Source of the DNA: a virus
Strand: one strand, 5' to 3'
Length of the DNA: 64,000 bases
Virus record (IMG/VR): IMGVR_UViG_3300042868_005761
Coordinates: 62,001-126,000 of that record
Made by a program: the position numbers and the translations under genes. This document shows, one piece after another, positions 3,924 to 62,444 of the stretch. Every line of letters begins with the position of its first letter. Position 1 is the first letter of the stretch. The notes under the pieces are model-generated. The model was not told the origin of the DNA and searched no databases. It worked only from the letters and a program-made list of their open reading frames with translations.

Positions 3924-3962
3924 TATTGGTGTTTGTTCATTTTTAACATAAGAGAGAATGAT

Positions 3963-5243
3963 ATGGGAATGGTACATCTTCACGCACATAGTTATTATTC
4001 ATTGCTTGATGGCTTACAGCCAGCTGATCAAATGGGCAAGATTGTTGCGTCTAGAGGGATGAATGCAGTTGCTTTGACCGACCATGGATATATGGGTGGC
4101 ATTCCAGAGTTTGTAAAAGGTTGCCGGGCTGCTAATGTAAAGCCTATTATTGGCAATGAGACTTATCTTGCATTTAATGATGCTAAGACTAAGTCTGATT
4201 TTATGCCTGAGAACGGTGTTGCAGAGAAAGCAGTTAACAATGGTCATTTCTTATTGCTTGCTAAGAATGAAGAAGGTTATAAGAACCTAATGAAGCTTAC
4301 TAAGTATTCATATGAGGATGGCTTTTATCGTTATCCTCGCATTGACTTGGAGATGTTTAAGCAGCATGCTAAGGGCTTGATTGCTACTAGTACTTGTATC
4401 AGTAGTCAGTGCTTTAAGTACTGGCACTGGGGTGAACATGCAAAGATTGATAGATGGTGTGATGAAGTTAGAGAGGCAGTCGGCGACGACAGCTTCTTCC
4501 TTGAGCTTCAGCATAACAATGTTGAAAAGCAATATGGCTATAATCAATATCTAATTGATCTAAGTAAGCGCAAGAATATTCCCCTTGTCCTTACTGCAGA
4601 TGCACATCATCAGAACCAAGATCAGTATAAACTACGTAGCTATGTTATGTGTGTGAGTATGCATAAGACTCCAGATACAATGCCATATGAAGTCCAAGAT
4701 CACAATGCTTGGATGTATGATGCCGAATTTGCTAAGAGTTTATGCGACGATTGGCAATTGCCACACGAAGCAATTACTAATACTCAGCATGTAGCAGATC
4801 TTGTAGATGGTGACTACTTTGAAAGAGTCACTAGAGCTCCCAATCTTCAGCTTGAAGGTCTTACTCCGGAAGGCACAAGCTTAATGTTGCTTAAGAAGGC
4901 TAAGGCTGGACTTATAGCTAGACTTGGCGTAGCTACCTGGGCGGATGTTCCTAAGGCATATAAGGATAGAATTAAATACGAGTTCCAAGTCATTGACGAG
5001 GCTCGTTATAGTTCTTATTTCCTTGTCGTTCAGGACTATGTTAGTCTTGCTAAGGGTATGGGTATACCCGTTGGCCCAGCACGTGGTTCTGGTGGCGGAT
5101 CTTTGATCTCATGGTCACTTGGAATCACTGCCAAGCATCTTGATCCTGTTAAGCATGGCTTACTCTTTGAGCGCTTCCTGAATCCTGGTCGAGTAAGAAT
5201 ATCTTTAGACTTCTCAGAGGATATGAAGGAATTAAATGCTTAA
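3963..5243 (+). CDS. DNA polymerase III alpha subunit (DnaE-like), N-terminal half: PHP and partial palm
   Basis: This is the first part of a split bacterial-type replicative polymerase. The 426 residues begin with the PHP domain: HLHAHS (5-10), TDHG, GNETY and TADAHHQNQD retain most of the metal-binding pattern, so a proofreading or phosphatase activity is plausible. The palm begins with GPARGSGGGSLISWSLGIT, the GRGSAAGS-type nucleotide-binding motif, and FERFLNPGRVRIS. It stops exactly where the catalytic PDIDxDF motif should come. The last residues, LDFSEDMKELNA, look like a degraded remnant of the DFSEDRR-EEV segment that normally follows. ATG 3963 is preceded by AGAGAG. A TTG at 3933 in frame has no such site. 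The next gene overlaps by 8 bases. Confidence 0.88.
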   Translation: MGMVHLHAHSYYSLLDGLQPADQMGKIVASRGMNAVALTDHGYMGGIPEFVKGCRAANVKPIIGNETYLAFNDAKTKSDFMPENGVAEKAVNNGHFLLLAKNEEGYKNLMKLTKYSYEDGFYRYPRIDLEMFKQHAKGLIATSTCISSQCFKYWHWGEHAKIDRWCDEVREAVGDDSFFLELQHNNVEKQYGYNQYLIDLSKRKNIPLVLTADAHHQNQDQYKLRSYVMCVSMHKTPDTMPYEVQDHNAWMYDAEFAKSLCDDWQLPHEAITNTQHVADLVDGDYFERVTRAPNLQLEGLTPEGTSLMLLKKAKAGLIARLGVATWADVPKAYKDRIKYEFQVIDEARYSSYFLVVQDYVSLAKGMGIPVGPARGSGGGSLISWSLGITAKHLDPVKHGLLFERFLNPGRVRISLDFSEDMKELNA

Positions 5244-5526
5244 AAATATAAAGATAGATATGCCAGAGGTTCCTTATCGCAACACAATTGCAGAAGAATT
5301 TGTTTACAATACAGAAACTCAAAGCATAGAGTCTCTAAAGGAGTCTTTTATTCTTAAGTCTATATTTAACAAGAAGAACTTCTGGGCTATCAAGCATCCT
5401 TTTTTAATATTACTTGCTTTATTCTTTAGATACATTATGATTAATAACCAAGTATCTAATGCACATCATAAGCGTAAAGAAACTTTACACTTATTTAAAT
5501 CTATTGCCCGTCAATGCTGGAGTTAG
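5236..5526 (+). CDS. Small putative membrane protein between polymerase halves
   Basis: This is a 96-residue protein of unknown function. It has a strong ribosome binding site AAGGA (5226-5230), 5 bases before its ATG, and overlaps the end of the polymerase N-half by 8 bases, so it is probably translated. The N-terminal half is polar. Around residues 54-72 is an aromatic-rich hydrophobic stretch (PFLILLALFFRYIMI) that could span or touch a membrane. The C-terminus is basic with His and Lys (HHKRKETLHLF). It lies in a third reading frame relative to the two polymerase halves. No homing endonuclease motif is visible. Confidence 0.5.
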   Translation: MLKNIKIDMPEVPYRNTIAEEFVYNTETQSIESLKESFILKSIFNKKNFWAIKHPFLILLALFFRYIMINNQVSNAHHKRKETLHLFKSIARQCWS

Positions 5527-5527
5527 A

Positions 5528-7945
5528 ATGTCAATTACTATAGAAAACATACGATCTTTCTTTGACAAGGAAAGGTTGCCAGCTGTTAATAAAGACTATT
5601 TGGAGTTTGAGATTAAGTATCTTACTCCTGAAACTCTAGTATTTATAAACAATGCTTATGATTCACAGAAATCATTGTCTAATAAGTCTAATAGTGCAAT
5701 TCTATATTTGCTTAATTTGTCTGACAATTATAATTCCGATTCACGTATAACTTATAACGTAGACGGCGAAGGTCCAGACATTGACACTGACTTTTGTAAT
5801 GTCCGTGCTGATGATCTAATCAAAGCACTCCAAACTAAATATGGTCATGACCGTGTTCTTCGTGTCTCAACTTATAAGCCATGGTCTCTTAAGACCAGTG
5901 TTAAGGCTTTTACTAAGTTACTCAAGAACGCAGATGGATCATACAGAACTATTGCTGACGCAGAACGTCTTGCTGATAGTTTGCCTGAGAGTCACCGTGG
6001 TAAATACGTAACTTACAAAGAGCTTATCGAAGATAATAGTGAGCACATTAAGAAGATTGTAGAAGCTAATCAAGATATCTTTAGTCTTTGCGGACCAGTA
6101 GATGGCCAAGCTAAGGAAGTTAGCGTTCATGCTAGCGCAGTTCTAATTGGTACAAGTCCAGTAGACCAGATGATTCCAATTCGCAAAAGCAAGACTGAAG
6201 GCGCAGACTGGTTTAATCTTACGCAGTGGGAAGGTCCAACTCTAGAAAAGATGAACTTTATTAAGTTCGATATCCTTAGAATTGACTGTCTTACTATTAA
6301 TGATCTTACCTGTAAGCGTATTGGCAAGTCCCTTAAATGGCTAGAGGAAGAAGTTCCTACTGATGATCCAGCCGTGTTTGAGTTAATCAATAAGGGATTT
6401 ACAGCTGGACTATTCCAGATGGAAGAGACCTATCTCCTAAAGCTTGTAGCTGATCTTAAGCCACAGAGCGTTCAGGATCTTGCAGTTTTCTCAGCTCTTA
6501 ATCGTCCTGGTCCTCGTGACTCTGGTCTTCTCCAAGACTATATTGATTACAAGACAACTAAAGAGACTCAGAATAAATTACATCCCTTGCTTGATGGTAT
6601 ACTTGCTGAGACCGGAGGTGTTCTTATTTACCAAGAACAAATTATGGCAGCATGTCAAATTCTTGCAGGTGTAACCTTACAAGAAGCTGATAAGATTAGA
6701 AAAGCAATGGGCAAGAAGGACGCTATTCTAATGGAGGAGTATCGCACACTTTTTGTGGATGGCTGTGGACGTCTTCATCAGATTAATACTAGCGAAGCAA
6801 CTCGTATATGGAATATCATTGCAGCATTTGCTGAGTATGGATTTAATAAAAGTCATGCTCTTGCTTATGCTTTCATTACATATTTCAATGCATATCTTAA
6901 AACTTACTACCCTACAGACTTTATGCTTACGCTAATGACTGTTAGGAGTGGTAAGCCAGAGAAACTGGTTCGTTATATCAACGAGTATCGGCAGATGGGA
7001 TACAATATTCTTCCACCTAGCATTAACAATAGTGATATTGGTTTTACTAAGTTGGATGATAACACTATCCTATTTGGCCTTGGCATGATCAATGGCATTG
7101 GTAACAAAGCTAGCGATCTTATACTCAAGGCTCGTGGCCGGAAGTCCTTTACAAGCATGGCTGATTTCTTTACTAGAATTAATCGAACAAAGATTAATGC
7201 TGGCGTTGTTAGCATACTTGCAAAGGTTGGTGCCTTTGATAGCTTTGGATATGACAGAGTTAAGCTTGTAGAGAAACTTTCTGATATCTTTGATTACTAT
7301 ACAAAGGTTGAAAACTATCAAACAAGAATAGTTCAAGCTTTTGAACGTAACAAAGAGCTAGATGCTTATCCTGCATTGCTCGATGACTGGACTACCAAAG
7401 TAAAAGCTGGTGTCATTACAGTACAACTAGATTCTGACAGTAAGAAGGTTTACTCTGAACTAAGACCTAAGAAGCCATTGGTACTCAAAGTTCCAGAACA
7501 GCCTGTCTTTCCTGACCTAGAGTCTATCAAGAAAAGTCTGGGATACAAAGTCCCACTTCAAATTGTCAAATGGGAATCTGAATATTGTAAGTTCTTTATT
7601 AGCCGCCATCCTCTGTCCTATATCACTAAGACGCCTCCTGGCATTTTAATTAGTCAAATAGAGGATATAGATGAAACAAATAGTAACGAAGGCAATCTGC
7701 TCGTTGCGGTATCTCATATTAAAGAACAGCAAATTAAAAGTGGTAAATCGAAAGGAAAATTAATGGCAACATTGACAATCGAAGATTTATCTTCTATATC
7801 AGAAGTCACATTGTTCTCAGATCAATATGAAGAATTGAAAGACAAACTTGACTATTGTTCCCTATTATTTTTCCCCTACAAAGCAACTAAGAAAGATGAC
7901 TTCTTACGGATTCGCCCAGTAGGAAAAATTACTTTAATAAAGTAA
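5528..7945 (+). CDS. DNA polymerase III alpha subunit (DnaE-like), C-terminal half with catalytic aspartates
   Basis: This is the second part of the split polymerase, 805 residues. After about 80 residues with no similarity I recognise, it starts at GPDIDTDFC (82-90), carrying the paired catalytic aspartates. The third aspartate is in KFDILRIDCLT (D248). Then come the fingers (LFQMEETYLLKL, NRPGPRDSG, AFAEYGFNKSHALAYA), a helix-hairpin-helix (INGIGNKA, around 520), ISRHPLSYI corresponding to the SGHPL motif, and a C-terminal OB-fold from about 715. ATG 5528 has GGAG at 5519-5522. An upstream in-frame ATG at 5459 lacks this and would sit inside the small gene. The two halves total 1231 residues, close to a whole DnaE, so they probably assemble. 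Confidence 0.88.
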   Translation: MSITIENIRSFFDKERLPAVNKDYLEFEIKYLTPETLVFINNAYDSQKSLSNKSNSAILYLLNLSDNYNSDSRITYNVDGEGPDIDTDFCNVRADDLIKALQTKYGHDRVLRVSTYKPWSLKTSVKAFTKLLKNADGSYRTIADAERLADSLPESHRGKYVTYKELIEDNSEHIKKIVEANQDIFSLCGPVDGQAKEVSVHASAVLIGTSPVDQMIPIRKSKTEGADWFNLTQWEGPTLEKMNFIKFDILRIDCLTINDLTCKRIGKSLKWLEEEVPTDDPAVFELINKGFTAGLFQMEETYLLKLVADLKPQSVQDLAVFSALNRPGPRDSGLLQDYIDYKTTKETQNKLHPLLDGILAETGGVLIYQEQIMAACQILAGVTLQEADKIRKAMGKKDAILMEEYRTLFVDGCGRLHQINTSEATRIWNIIAAFAEYGFNKSHALAYAFITYFNAYLKTYYPTDFMLTLMTVRSGKPEKLVRYINEYRQMGYNILPPSINNSDIGFTKLDDNTILFGLGMINGIGNKASDLILKARGRKSFTSMADFFTRINRTKINAGVVSILAKVGAFDSFGYDRVKLVEKLSDIFDYYTKVENYQTRIVQAFERNKELDAYPALLDDWTTKVKAGVITVQLDSDSKKVYSELRPKKPLVLKVPEQPVFPDLESIKKSLGYKVPLQIVKWESEYCKFFISRHPLSYITKTPPGILISQIEDIDETNSNEGNLLVAVSHIKEQQIKSGKSKGKLMATLTIEDLSSISEVTLFSDQYEELKDKLDYCSLLFFPYKATKKDDFLRIRPVGKITLIK

Positions 7946-18477: not shown

Positions 18478-18491
18478 GAATGGAGATTAAA

Positions 18492-19025
18492 ATGAATAAG
18501 ATTAAGTTTACCCTAGTTTCGTTTCTTGCTACCCTACTTGTAGCTTCAACTGCTTACGCTACTGAGTGCGTCACCACTGCAGATTGCGCTACCGGCGAAG
18601 TCTGTGCTGCTGTTGCTAGTGCAGAGTGTCCTCCTTGTGCCGAAGGCTCAGCCTGTGACTCTTGTGCTACCGAGCTACTTGCTTGTGTCCCAGAGGAAGT
18701 TCCTGCTCCTTGCGATACCGCTACTTCAGGTTCCGGTTCAGGTTCTGAGGGCTCAGCTGCCGTTGATCCTGATTGTGGATCTGGAGAAGCTGATGCTGGT
18801 GGTTCAGGTTCAGGTGAAGTCACTCCCGTAGATGGTAGTGGTGCTGACGCTGGTGCTGACACTGCTCTTACTGAGACTGATGGTAGCGGCTCAGGAGCGG
18901 CCGCCACTGCCGATAAAAGCAAGGACCAGTCTGGGTGTTCAGTGGTTTCTAATACTGCTGGCGTCTTCGGTCTTTTTGCTATAATTGGCGCTGTGGTTTT
19001 CTTCCGCAGACGTAACAATATCTAA
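18492..19025 (+). CDS. Secreted Cys-rich protein with MYXO-CTERM-like sorting tail
   Basis: This 177-residue precursor looks like a cell-surface protein. It has a signal peptide (residues 1-23, basic MNKIKF, hydrophobic core, cleavage after AYA). A cysteine-rich region (24-78, pattern C-x5-C-x5-C and later pairs) is followed by a Gly-Ser and acidic low-complexity stalk with GSGSG repeats. The C-terminal 31 residues read SGCS, then a membrane helix (GVFGLFAIIGAVVFF), then RRR. Gly-Cys followed by a helix and Arg cluster is the MYXO-CTERM (GC_trans_RRR) pattern of Myxococcota surface proteins. ATG 18492 has GGAG upstream; an ATG at 18480 would only add 4 residues. It might alter the infected cell surface. 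Confidence 0.8.
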   Translation: MNKIKFTLVSFLATLLVASTAYATECVTTADCATGEVCAAVASAECPPCAEGSACDSCATELLACVPEEVPAPCDTATSGSGSGSEGSAAVDPDCGSGEADAGGSGSGEVTPVDGSGADAGADTALTETDGSGSGAAATADKSKDQSGCSVVSNTAGVFGLFAIIGAVVFFRRRNNI

Positions 19026-19099
19026 TGAATGGCGATAAAAACGCCTTCTTACATGGTGTTGTAGCCATACTCATTTTTATTATTTTTCGTTATTGTTAA
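19025..19099 (+). CDS. 24-residue membrane peptide
   Basis: A short open frame starts with an ATG that shares its A with the TAA of the upstream gene (TAATG). It encodes 24 residues: a polar start MNGDKNAFLHG, a hydrophobic helix (VVAILIFIIF) and RYC at the end. The stop TAA at 19097-19099 overlaps the AAGGTG ribosome binding site of the next gene. Overlap on both sides suggests it is a translated part of the operon. Function unknown. It might pair with the surface protein upstream. Confidence 0.45.
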   Translation: MNGDKNAFLHGVVAILIFIIFRYC

Positions 19100-19107
19100 G
19101 GTGAAAT

Positions 19108-19572
19108 ATGGAATCAGATATTAAATTAGTAGATCTACGTACGCAGTCTTTAAGAGTAGTAAAGGAGTGCATTAAGATTGCAGAGTCTCTTGGCGCTACA
19201 TCTTTTCGTTTTTATGTTAATCCAACATATATTCGCAATGGTTTAGTAGTCACTAGCATTGTAAAACTAATTGGCGAAGCTCCTCCTGATACTCAGTATC
19301 TAATTGACTTGGCTGGTCTAAAGAATCTTAAGGCTACTGTTGACTTTGCCAAGAAGGTTCTTATCGACGATGGCGAGGCAAACGTAGAAGAGCGTGAAGA
19401 GCTTTTTGTTCCAGCTGTTACTGAAGCTGCTATTGAGTCAGAGAAGGAAGAAGATTCAACATCTATGCCAACACAGAAGTCTGCTTCTAAGAAGCGTGGC
19501 CGTAAGAAAGTTGCCGTAGAAAGCGATGAGCCTTCTGATTCTGATGATCTAGAAACTGAGGAGTCTGAATAA
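19108..19572 (+). CDS. Hypothetical protein with charged low-complexity C-terminus
   Basis: This 154-residue protein has a compact N-terminal domain of about 95 residues with alternating helices and strands (SLRVVKECIKIAESLGATSFRFYV). A long disordered tail follows, with a basic patch KKRGRKK and a very acidic end (DEPSDSDDLETEESE). The basic patch could bind nucleic acid. AAGGTG precedes the ATG. The gene's stop shares a base with the next start. Confidence 0.65.
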   Translation: MESDIKLVDLRTQSLRVVKECIKIAESLGATSFRFYVNPTYIRNGLVVTSIVKLIGEAPPDTQYLIDLAGLKNLKATVDFAKKVLIDDGEANVEEREELFVPAVTEAAIESEKEEDSTSMPTQKSASKKRGRKKVAVESDEPSDSDDLETEESE

Positions 19573-19988
19573 TGCCTGGTTTAACTTATGGTGAAAAAGT
19601 TAATACGGAAATGCTGACTTACAATCACAGCGAGTTTTTTGGACTTGCTGAACTTCCATTTATTACAAATGGAGCAGGAGATGGTAGTCAAGCTACTATA
19701 ATTAATTGCAGTAGCCTTAGTGCATCTCAGGGTCGCTCAAAAAGCATAAGAGTCCAAGCTTCCGATAGTGGAAACCTACCTATTGTTTTTAATCTTTGGT
19801 TTGGTTGCAATCTACCTGAGATTGAACAAGCAATACTTACTGGTACTCCTGCTCAAATACTTTCTATAGGAAGCGTTGATATGACATTTCCAATTGGAAC
19901 AGAATACTTTGCTATTGATTACGATGCTGCTTTAAGTGGTGTATCAATAGCACCTGAGACATTAACAATGTCGATTACAATCGTCTAA
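19572..19988 (+). CDS. Hypothetical protein, probably beta-rich, 138 residues
   Basis: I do not recognise this protein. It is neutral and Ser/Gly/Thr-rich with a repeated strand pattern, like a small beta-sandwich. A virion decoration or fibre-like role would fit that composition but is not demonstrated. Start and upstream stop form TAATG. It is the last gene of the + block, directly before the terminator. Confidence 0.65.
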   Translation: MPGLTYGEKVNTEMLTYNHSEFFGLAELPFITNGAGDGSQATIINCSSLSASQGRSKSIRVQASDSGNLPIVFNLWFGCNLPEIEQAILTGTPAQILSIGSVDMTFPIGTEYFAIDYDAALSGVSIAPETLTMSITIV

Positions 19989-60047: not shown

Positions 60048-62444
60048 TTACTGCTTGCCACTTCCCTCTGACGGGATAATTCCACCAATCTTATCTCCTT
60101 CGGCTGCTGTTGGGGCTGCTGTTGGGGCTGAAAGTCTTTCTGTATCTTTCATAAGGCGAGTCTCACCAGACTCATTTGTGATGATCCAATGCTCTTTTCT
60201 TAGTTCATCTTCTAATGTTTCTATTCTTCTAGCAAGTTTCTGCGCAGCATTAATTACATCTTCAGTTACATTAATTCCAGTTTTTTGACCTGCTGCTTCT
60301 CCATATAAACCATAACCTATGTTGGCTGCACATAGGCTATAAAAATTAAAAAAATGATCAAAAATATCACCCATTAAATCGCTTGTTACGCGCTCGCGCC
60401 GTGCTATTTGACTTTTACCACCGTAAGGAGCCCCAGGTAAATTTTTATTAAAAATTTCTATCGCAGTAATGTCTGGGGATTCTTGTTCTAGTCCTGTGAG
60501 AGCCCTATAGTAATTATCTTTCCTGGAATAGTAGTCTTTAATTCTTTCGCCGCAGTCTGAAAATAATAGCAATTGCTCTTTACCCGCAGGCTGAAACGCA
60601 CTTAACTTCAAAGAATTAGAAGCTCCAGATAGAGTAGGTGCAAGATATTTATTATAATTATTTACATAATATTCAAGAATATCATTTTCCATATCTCCTA
60701 TCACTACATCCCAAGTACTCCCAAAAAACCAAACCCTATACGCAGGAGTAGTCTCAGTTTTGGGCACCATAGTTGAAGTCATTATATGACCTGCTATATA
60801 ACTGGGATGACTTTTATGTAAATTATTGTTGATATCACTTTCTCTATAAAATCTCTTACTGGTGCTAGGATCCACCACAGTTGCAAACTTGTGATTTTTA
60901 ACAAAATTATAGCTCATTTGCCAACTGCTTTCTATTTCAGCATCAATCTTCCAGCGACTCTGAGGGTTCTCTCCGGTAACTGTAAGACCTAAGCTTGGAC
61001 TTGTCCATTGAACTTTATTTCTAATATTTGCTGCTTTTAGAATACCGTCAGTTTGAATCCACCATTTTGATCCATTAGCACCAAGAAAATGGGAAATATA
61101 CATCATCCAATAAGGAAAAACTCCATCAAAAGTACCAACAAGTTTTAGGTTTCTTTCGTTGACAGTTTCTATCCCTTTTTTATTTCTACTACCTGCACTA
61201 CCTGCACTACCTGTTGTACTAAGCTCTGGAAGTATGTCTTGTTTTATTAGCTTTTTGGTTTCCGGATCTTCAGTTTGAAAGTAGCTGTTATTTATTACAG
61301 CCTGAACTTGCCCTTCAAGCAATCCTCCAAAGGTATCTATAAATGCAAGTTCATCTGGCGCAAATCGGGAATCTAAGTATCTCATAGAAGTAAAATCACT
61401 ATCCATTCTTGTATCTAGATAAACAAAAGGATAAGGATTTCTAGCATCTCTAAATTTCATTTGGTCAGGATTCTCCGGGTCAACTTCAAGAAAAGCTGAC
61501 TCAACATAGTTCTTTGTTCCTCTGTTAGCCGCTTGGAATTGAGTCACAAGGAATTGATTTCTTCCCCATTCCGCCTTTTCTCGATCATATTTAGCTATAT
61601 ATTCAGGATTATTGATCATTAATCTTCTATATTCATGTGCCGCAACTACATAGCGATCTCTCATAGCTGTATGGCTTTGATACTGTAAGTATCCGGTTGC
61701 TGCCGAATCATTTATGGCATAAACAGTATTACCAGATTCTCTCTCAGCGACAGCTAATCTAAATAAAGTAGCATTAAACTTAAGAAGATAAGAATTTTCT
61801 GCTGAAAGATTATCTAATTGAAATACGTTTAAGTATCTCAAGTCAAAAGGTTTCATTCCACCACCAGGAGTACCTGGGTTAAAAGTAAGTATACTACTTG
61901 CATCAAGTTTGACACCAGGAAGAGCTTCATTGCGAGGAGGCGCTCCACTACCACTACCACTTCCAGAACCACTGCCGTCACCACTGCCGCTAGGGGCTCC
62001 CTGTCCAAAAATTCCCCCTGTCTCCGGATCAGTCCAAGCATCGGCAACTTGCCCGACATACTCAAACAGGCTCGGTAGGGATTCGTCTGAATCGTCTTCT
62101 TGATTATCACCAATGTAATCACTGGCTAATGCAGTAAGTCCGACTCCTCCTACAGCAAGAGGAACCCACAAGGGCGCGGTGGTCGCAAGCGCTCCGACAC
62201 CTCCGACTGTTAAAAATGTTCCTGCTATCGTAGTTACGTCTCCCTGTCGCCATCGTTCACCGTATGCATTGCCGAACCGTGCAATCGCGTCAAAAGCGCC
62301 TTGCTGTACTGGAACGTCTTGCTGTACTGGAGCAGCAATAGTACTTCCAGGAACTACTGCAGGGGTAGGAGTAGGAGGGGCACCTGAACCTTCAGCAACA
62401 CCAGAACCTTCTTCTCCTGTATATCCTCTTTGTTCTGCTGGCAT
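60048..62444 (-). CDS. Tail protein with lytic-transglycosylase-like segment (798 residues)
   Basis: After a Gly/Ser/Pro-rich start and a membrane-like stretch (71-106, GTFLTVGGVGALATTAPLWV), the protein has a GSGSGSG linker (151-168). At 230-262 it shows AVAERESGNTVYAIND then SAATGYLQYQSHTAM. This resembles the lytic transglycosylase signature, with E236 in ESG and a following A-x-G-x-x-Q. The remainder (300-798) is unassigned. Together with the M15 proteins it would give the tail a glycan-cutting activity. The SLT call rests on one motif and is moderate. Confidence 0.55.
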   Translation of the reverse strand: MPAEQRGYTGEEGSGVAEGSGAPPTPTPAVVPGSTIAAPVQQDVPVQQGAFDAIARFGNAYGERWRQGDVTTIAGTFLTVGGVGALATTAPLWVPLAVGGVGLTALASDYIGDNQEDDSDESLPSLFEYVGQVADAWTDPETGGIFGQGAPSGSGDGSGSGSGSGSGAPPRNEALPGVKLDASSILTFNPGTPGGGMKPFDLRYLNVFQLDNLSAENSYLLKFNATLFRLAVAERESGNTVYAINDSAATGYLQYQSHTAMRDRYVVAAHEYRRLMINNPEYIAKYDREKAEWGRNQFLVTQFQAANRGTKNYVESAFLEVDPENPDQMKFRDARNPYPFVYLDTRMDSDFTSMRYLDSRFAPDELAFIDTFGGLLEGQVQAVINNSYFQTEDPETKKLIKQDILPELSTTGSAGSAGSRNKKGIETVNERNLKLVGTFDGVFPYWMMYISHFLGANGSKWWIQTDGILKAANIRNKVQWTSPSLGLTVTGENPQSRWKIDAEIESSWQMSYNFVKNHKFATVVDPSTSKRFYRESDINNNLHKSHPSYIAGHIMTSTMVPKTETTPAYRVWFFGSTWDVVIGDMENDILEYYVNNYNKYLAPTLSGASNSLKLSAFQPAGKEQLLLFSDCGERIKDYYSRKDNYYRALTGLEQESPDITAIEIFNKNLPGAPYGGKSQIARRERVTSDLMGDIFDHFFNFYSLCAANIGYGLYGEAAGQKTGINVTEDVINAAQKLARRIETLEDELRKEHWIITNESGETRLMKDTERLSAPTAAPTAAEGDKIGGIIPSEGSGKQ

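What the first reader, a model, noticed from the sequence alone, without database searches (positions are those of the whole stretch)
18492..19025. Phage-encoded surface protein with a MYXO-CTERM-like sorting tail
Signal peptide, Cys-rich head, Gly-Ser stalk, then SGCS / membrane helix / RRR matches the C-terminal tags processed and anchored by bacterial sorting enzymes in Myxococcota. A phage carrying such a protein could use host machinery to display it on the infected cell, for example to block superinfection or change attachment. It also gives a specific host clue.
Basis: partly seen in the sequence, partly recalled or inferred. Interest (0 to 1): 0.78.

Follow-up and report, generated by a model that had tools for sequence, protein, structure and literature searches.

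The report
Phage surface protein with MYXO-CTERM-like tail
A large uncultivated phage carries a conserved gene for an exported, cysteine-rich protein whose end looks like the surface-anchoring tags of myxobacteria, so the phage may use host sorting machinery to decorate the infected cell, but the tag scores below the formal cut-offs and the host is unknown.

Summary
The ORF at 18492-19025 (+), start fixed by a good Shine-Dalgarno, encodes a type I signal peptide, a head and stalk with ten invariant cysteines, a 70-residue acidic Gly/Ser stalk, then SGCS / membrane helix / RRRNNI. It lies in a 176-kb contractile-tailed phage record. All four other phage contigs that cover the locus carry it at the same place (84-86% identity, purifying selection). 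In one relative the tail block was replaced by a diverged one that still keeps SGCS-helix-RRK, so tail function is selected.

The MYXO-CTERM reading is only partly supported. Isolated tails score 13.0-17.6 bits against TIGR03901 (cut-off 20; Myxococcus TraA 20.6); one allele is not reported. Scores against TIGR03382 are 10.7-13.3 (cut-off 15.85). Removing GCS abolishes these matches but not generic anchor matches, so the Cys motif is what resembles MYXO-CTERM. No host relative was found, but the searches were weak. The phage encodes no CPBP protease.

Best reading: a phage-encoded envelope protein, made with the replication genes and anchored by a C-terminal Cys-type sorting signal that host enzymes process; superinfection exclusion is the likeliest role, inferred only. 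The main rival is an ordinary inner-membrane anchor. The host phylum remains unproven.

The parts
18482..18485 (+). Shine-Dalgarno GGAG, 6 bases before ATG 18492
   Evidence: sequence; conserved upstream of the start in L011, L012, L013, L014
18492..19025 (+). gene for the exported Cys-rich, C-terminally anchored protein (177 aa plus stop)
   Evidence: ORF, 4 relatives at 84-86% identity, dN/dS 0.15-0.38
18492..18560 (+). signal peptide, residues 1-23, cleavage expected at AYA|TE
   Evidence: sequence; helix 3-23 in a low-confidence AF2 model; nearly invariant
18561..18716 (+). Cys-rich head, residues 24-75, 9 cysteines, all invariant
   Evidence: dN/dS 0.04-0.13 in 5 of 6 pairs, 0.49 in the closest pair with only 5 changes
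18717..18929 (+). acidic Gly/Ser/Ala stalk, residues 76-146, one Cys (95), length varies by 2-4 residues between relatives
   Evidence: no predicted structure except helix 137-146, low pLDDT
18930..19022 (+). C-terminal tail SGCS-TM-RRRNNI, residues 147-177; Cys149 codon 18936-18938, TM about 18954-19004, RRR 19005-19013
   Evidence: TIGR03901 and TIGR03382 subthreshold matches that need GCS; GCS, RR, N175 and I177 invariant
18829..19035 (+). block that is 66-82% identical to L003 while the DNA on both sides is 95-100% identical: an exchanged or diversified tail cassette
   Evidence: sliding identity
19025..19099 (+). overlapping 24-aa hydrophobic mini-ORF MNGDKNAFLHGVVAILIFIIFRYC, start inside the stop (TAATG), possible translationally coupled partner
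   Evidence: also in L003 (24 aa) and L002 (25 aa); absent in L012 and L013
17758..18477 (+). upstream neighbour, 239 aa, no family match; ends 14 bases before ATG 18492, so probably one transcript
   Evidence: synteny in all relatives

Best explanation
It is a phage gene, expressed with the replication genes, for an envelope protein of the infected cell. Shown by sequence: an N-terminal signal peptide, a Cys-rich head, a flexible acidic stalk, and a C-terminal membrane helix preceded by an invariant Gly-Cys-Ser and followed by Arg residues. Inferred: Sec exports it, the ten head and stalk cysteines pair into disulfides, and the helix first holds it in the inner membrane. Inferred: Cys149, the odd cysteine, is lipidated and the helix is then cut off by a host myxosortase-type (CPBP) protease, so the head ends up lipid-anchored on the outer membrane or cell surface. 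Inferred and least certain: there it changes the host envelope, most likely blocking the receptor for further phages (superinfection exclusion), in the manner of the phage T5 lipoprotein Llp.
For: Architecture and invariance of GCS/RR. Purifying selection with free drift of hydrophobic residues in the helix, and a tail cassette in L003 that changed VVSNTAG to AAPAIAS yet kept SGCS and RRK. MYXO-CTERM matches need GCS: TIGR03901 15.8 bits and TIGR03382 13.3 bits (profile 1-27 of 27) with it, none without it, while LPXTG, PGF and PVV anchor matches stay. Ten Cys in head and stalk plus one in the tail, all invariant. In M. xanthus the conserved cysteines of MYXO-CTERM are needed for cleavage by MrtX, and MrtX cleaves the tag in E. 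coli (PMC11980579). Position on the replication-gene strand with GC3 of 0.32, like its neighbours (0.28-0.39 for most) and unlike most late genes (0.19-0.25; endolysin 0.31). Many phages make exclusion proteins early, and T5 Llp is a small outer-membrane lipoprotein with a disulfide (PMC9586334). The phage lacks its own CPBP protease (PF02517), so a processing enzyme would have to come from the host.
Against: Both MYXO-CTERM models are below cut-off, and one allele (L012) is not reported for TIGR03901. The motif is SGCS, not the Cys-richer GCGC consensus of M. xanthus. The host is unknown, and 38% GC is unlike typical Myxococcota. No relative outside this phage group was found in phage, plasmid or PDB collections. 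Only four distinct alleles exist. Nothing tests lipidation, surface display or exclusion.
Confidence: 0.42

Rival explanations
1. Ordinary membrane protein: after export it stays in the inner membrane by an uncleaved C-terminal helix with a positive-inside Arg cluster; the Cys before the helix is a further disulfide partner or is acylated without cleavage. The head works in the periplasm, for example to block DNA entry of other phages.
For: HMM scores below cut-off; generic anchor models score as high or higher on the same tail (LPXTG_anchor 15.9-16.8 bits against a cut-off of 15.9, although no LPXTG motif is present). Any stop-transfer helix has basic residues on the cytoplasmic side.
Against: Exact conservation of GCS next to residues that vary freely and its retention in the exchanged L003 cassette; loss of the MYXO-CTERM match without GCS; GC before the helix is rare. 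Cys149 is odd in number and separated from the head by the stalk.
Confidence: 0.35
2. A Cys-type C-terminal sorting signal, but of another lineage's system (a low-GC Gram-negative host with its own CPBP-type enzyme), not MYXO-CTERM proper.
For: Related Cys-containing tags with related CPBP enzymes exist outside Myxococcota, e.g. MrtJ/JDVT-CTERM in beta- and gammaproteobacteria (PMC11980579). 38% GC. Tail fits TIGR03382 end to end but below cut-off.
Against: No other Cys-type CTERM model in NCBIfam that I recognise matched the tail; no host genome could be searched.
Confidence: 0.15
3. A lysis (spanin-like) protein or a virion component.
For: The holin-like and endolysin genes lie only 1.2-2 kb away on the other strand.
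Against: It is on the opposite strand, with the replication genes. There is no N-terminal lipobox, so it has only one anchor; a one-piece spanin needs an outer-membrane lipid anchor and a helix. It matches no PHROG.
Confidence: 0.06

Closest known systems
MYXO-CTERM proteins (TIGR03901, TIGR03382), e.g. Myxococcus xanthus TraA, processed by myxosortase MrtX (PMC11980579, PMC3325183)
   Same: Signal peptide, Cys-rich ectodomain, invariant Gly-Cys motif, then helix, then Arg cluster at the extreme C-terminus
   Different: Phage-encoded; scores below both cut-offs; one Cys rather than a Cys pair; host not known to be myxobacterial; ectodomain unrelated by sequence to any NCBIfam or Pfam family above cut-off
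Phage T5 Llp and the Cor lipoproteins of T1 and phi80 (superinfection exclusion; PMC9586334)
   Same: Small phage-encoded, disulfide-bearing envelope proteins; suggested common role in protecting the infected cell from further phages
   Different: Llp and Cor are N-terminally lipidated, Llp is periplasmic; here the anchor is C-terminal with a long stalk; no sequence relation shown
SasX and other prophage-encoded LPXTG proteins processed by sortase in Gram-positive bacteria (papers listed)
   Same: Phage-borne gene whose product is handed to a host C-terminal sorting enzyme
   Different: Gram-positive sortase system, temperate phage cargo; here a Gram-negative type tag in the conserved locus of a large phage (signs of lysogeny were not examined)

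Membership tests
MYXO-CTERM (TIGR03901) | Score at or above curated cut-off of 20 bits | tested here: not met
   16.0, 17.6, 13.0 bits, and no match for the fourth allele; TraA control 20.6
MYXO-CTERM (TIGR03382, GC_trans_RRR) | Score at or above curated cut-off of 15.85 bits | tested here: not met
   13.3 bits for the window allele and 10.7 for L003, profile 1-27 and 1-26 of 27
MYXO-CTERM | Tripartite extreme C-terminus: signature motif with invariant Cys, hydrophobic helix, Arg-rich end | tested here: met
   SGCS/AGCS, helix, RRR/RRK in all four alleles; the match to the models depends on GCS
MYXO-CTERM | N-terminal signal peptide | tested here: met
   sequence, residues 1-23 with AYA|TE; by inspection only, no signal-peptide predictor run
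MYXO-CTERM | Genome context with a myxosortase (CPBP family, PF02517) | tested here: inconclusive
   none in the phage; the host genome is unknown
MYXO-CTERM | Host in Myxococcota | not testable with these tools
MYXO-CTERM | Cys-dependent cleavage and surface anchoring | not testable with these tools
   needs an experiment
Superinfection exclusion proteins | Expression protects the cell from the same or related phage | not testable with these tools
   only location, conservation and analogy
Unimolecular spanin | N-terminal lipobox plus C-terminal helix | tested here: not met
   residues ATE precede the first Cys, so no lipobox (sequence)

The most novel reading that the evidence does not exclude
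A lytic-type phage of an unidentified Gram-negative host makes its own substrate for the host's Cys-type C-terminal sorting pathway (lipidation, then myxosortase cleavage), placing a disulfide-rich cap on the surface of the infected cell to exclude competitors.
Probability: 0.25. Interest if true: 0.72.

Novelty: new variant of a known kind. Interest (0 to 1): 0.48.

Why it matters
If true, it would be the first case known to me of a phage supplying a substrate to a Gram-negative Cys-type C-terminal sorting system; full-text searches for MYXO-CTERM, myxosortase and phage-encoded CTERM tags found none. It would show that the myxosortase pathway is exploited by phages, give a host clue for a group of large uncultivated phages, and offer a small natural substrate for testing what MrtX needs.

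Tried and rejected
Host relatives: two scans of genome contigs (an ATPase of the phage; the protein joined to a Myxococcus pilin probe written from memory) found nothing. The patterns chosen were short exact peptides, so this is weak negative evidence. Homologues in INPHARED phages, plasmids and PDB: none (the 13 weak head matches at E 7-10 are chance). More distant relatives by primase, terminase, capsid, polymerase and endolysin: the extra contigs are fragments that probably do not reach this locus, or unrelated phages, and none carries the protein, so they add nothing. Whole-contig searches with TIGR03901 and TIGR03382 rang nowhere in the phages. Structure prediction failed (mean pLDDT 44), so no fold search was run. 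Pfam late nodulin and Gram-positive anchor matches are subthreshold and rejected: low-complexity or helix only. The 154-aa antisense ORF at 18554-19018 is rejected as a composition artefact.

Full report
Observation. The ORF is present at 18492-19025 on the + strand. The start at 18492 has GGAG six bases upstream, conserved in relatives. It encodes 177 residues: a signal peptide with a signal-peptidase-I site (AYA|TE), a head with nine cysteines, an acidic Gly/Ser/Ala stalk with one cysteine, and the tail SGCSVVSNTAGVFGLFAIIGAVVFFRRRNNI. Cysteine is 6.2% of residues; 23 other genes of the window have 0.2-1.7%. The antisense ORF over the same stretch is an artefact of composition.

Context. The window is bases 62001-126000 of a 176,231-bp virus record. 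Terminase, tail sheath, primase, RNA polymerase sigma factor, RusA and endolysin matches make it a contractile-tailed phage. Its terminase is about 30% identical to the nearest annotated phage, Moorella phage MTATph1, and its capsid protein has no match in the phage collection. The gene sits near the end of the + strand block of replication genes, 14 bases after the previous stop; the lysis and tail genes run towards it on the other strand. Its GC3 (0.32) is that of the replication block, so it is not a recent arrival.

Relatives. Four other IMG/VR contigs carry the gene at the same place, all 84-86% identical; two of them (L012, L013) have the same protein. The primase of these phages is 98.6-99.6% identical over the part compared, so this gene evolves faster. 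Even so, dN/dS is 0.15-0.38 overall and 0.04-0.13 in the head for five of six pairs. All eleven cysteines are invariant. In the tail, G148-C149-S150, R172-R173, N175 and I177 are invariant while the helix drifts among hydrophobic residues. Between window and L003 the DNA is 95-100% identical on both sides but 66-82% identical from about 18829 to 19035. This looks like a recombined tail cassette, and it still reads SGCS-helix-RRK. This is the best evidence that the tail as a whole is a selected module.

Is it MYXO-CTERM? With the whole protein neither model is reported. With the isolated tail, TIGR03901 gives 16.0 bits (window), 17.6 (L003), 13.0 (L002) and nothing for L012, against a cut-off of 20; the TraA tail gives 20.6. 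TIGR03382 gives 13.3 (window) and 10.7 (L003) against 15.85. So formal membership is not met. As a control, the tails were cut just after GCS: both MYXO-CTERM matches disappear, while generic anchors (LPXTG, PGF, PVV) match as before; the TraA tail cut in the same way falls from 21.0 to 17.3 bits. The resemblance therefore rests on the Gly-Cys motif and not only on helix plus Arg. In six-frame ORFs of the loci then held, no other C-terminal helix with a basic tail has GC before it. The literature defines the tag by an invariant Cys, helix and Arg cluster and shows that MrtX cleavage needs the conserved cysteines (PMC11980579, PMC3325183). Works-like is plausible; is-a is not shown.

Mechanism. 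Export and membrane insertion follow from the sequence. Ten cysteines can pair and Cys149 is left over, which suits lipidation (inference). The phage has no CPBP protease, so any processing would be by the host. Surface display and superinfection exclusion are inferred from the position with the replication genes, the fast evolution, the neighbouring variable genes and the analogy with T5 Llp (PMC9586334). The rival of a plain inner-membrane anchor cannot be excluded.

Host. No host relative was found, but these scans were weak. The phage GC of 38% is unlike typical Myxococcota.

Partner. A 24-aa hydrophobic mini-ORF ending in Cys starts inside the stop codon (TAATG, 19025-19099). It is kept in L003 and, in diverged form, in L002, and is missing in L012 and L013. 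It may be a coupled membrane peptide.

Noticed in passing
window 3933-5243 and 5459-7945: DNA polymerase III alpha appears split into two ORFs just before the catalytic PDIDTDF motif; the second ORF begins with about 105 residues that match no phage polymerase (listed alignments start at residue 100-119, mostly 106).
   Followed up: partly
window 19025-19099: Overlapping 24-aa hydrophobic mini-ORF with C-terminal Cys, present behind three of the four alleles.
   Followed up: partly
window 19108-19988: The two genes downstream vary strongly between otherwise close phages (20-60% DNA identity in places), and L012 and L013 have an extra related-looking copy: a hypervariable locus next to the surface protein.
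   Followed up: no
L006 1599-2702 and 9761-10834: Adenylosuccinate-synthetase-like (phrog_1211) and dehydrogenase (phrog_9582, IMP-dehydrogenase-like by eye) genes, possibly purine or modified-base metabolism.
   Followed up: no
L009 6692-7540: Dps/ferritin-like protein by eye (phrog_3636, DNA binding protein) between capsid and packaging genes.
   Followed up: no
window 60048-62444: Protein of the structural block with a (GS)n linker like the stalk of the surface protein.
   Followed up: no
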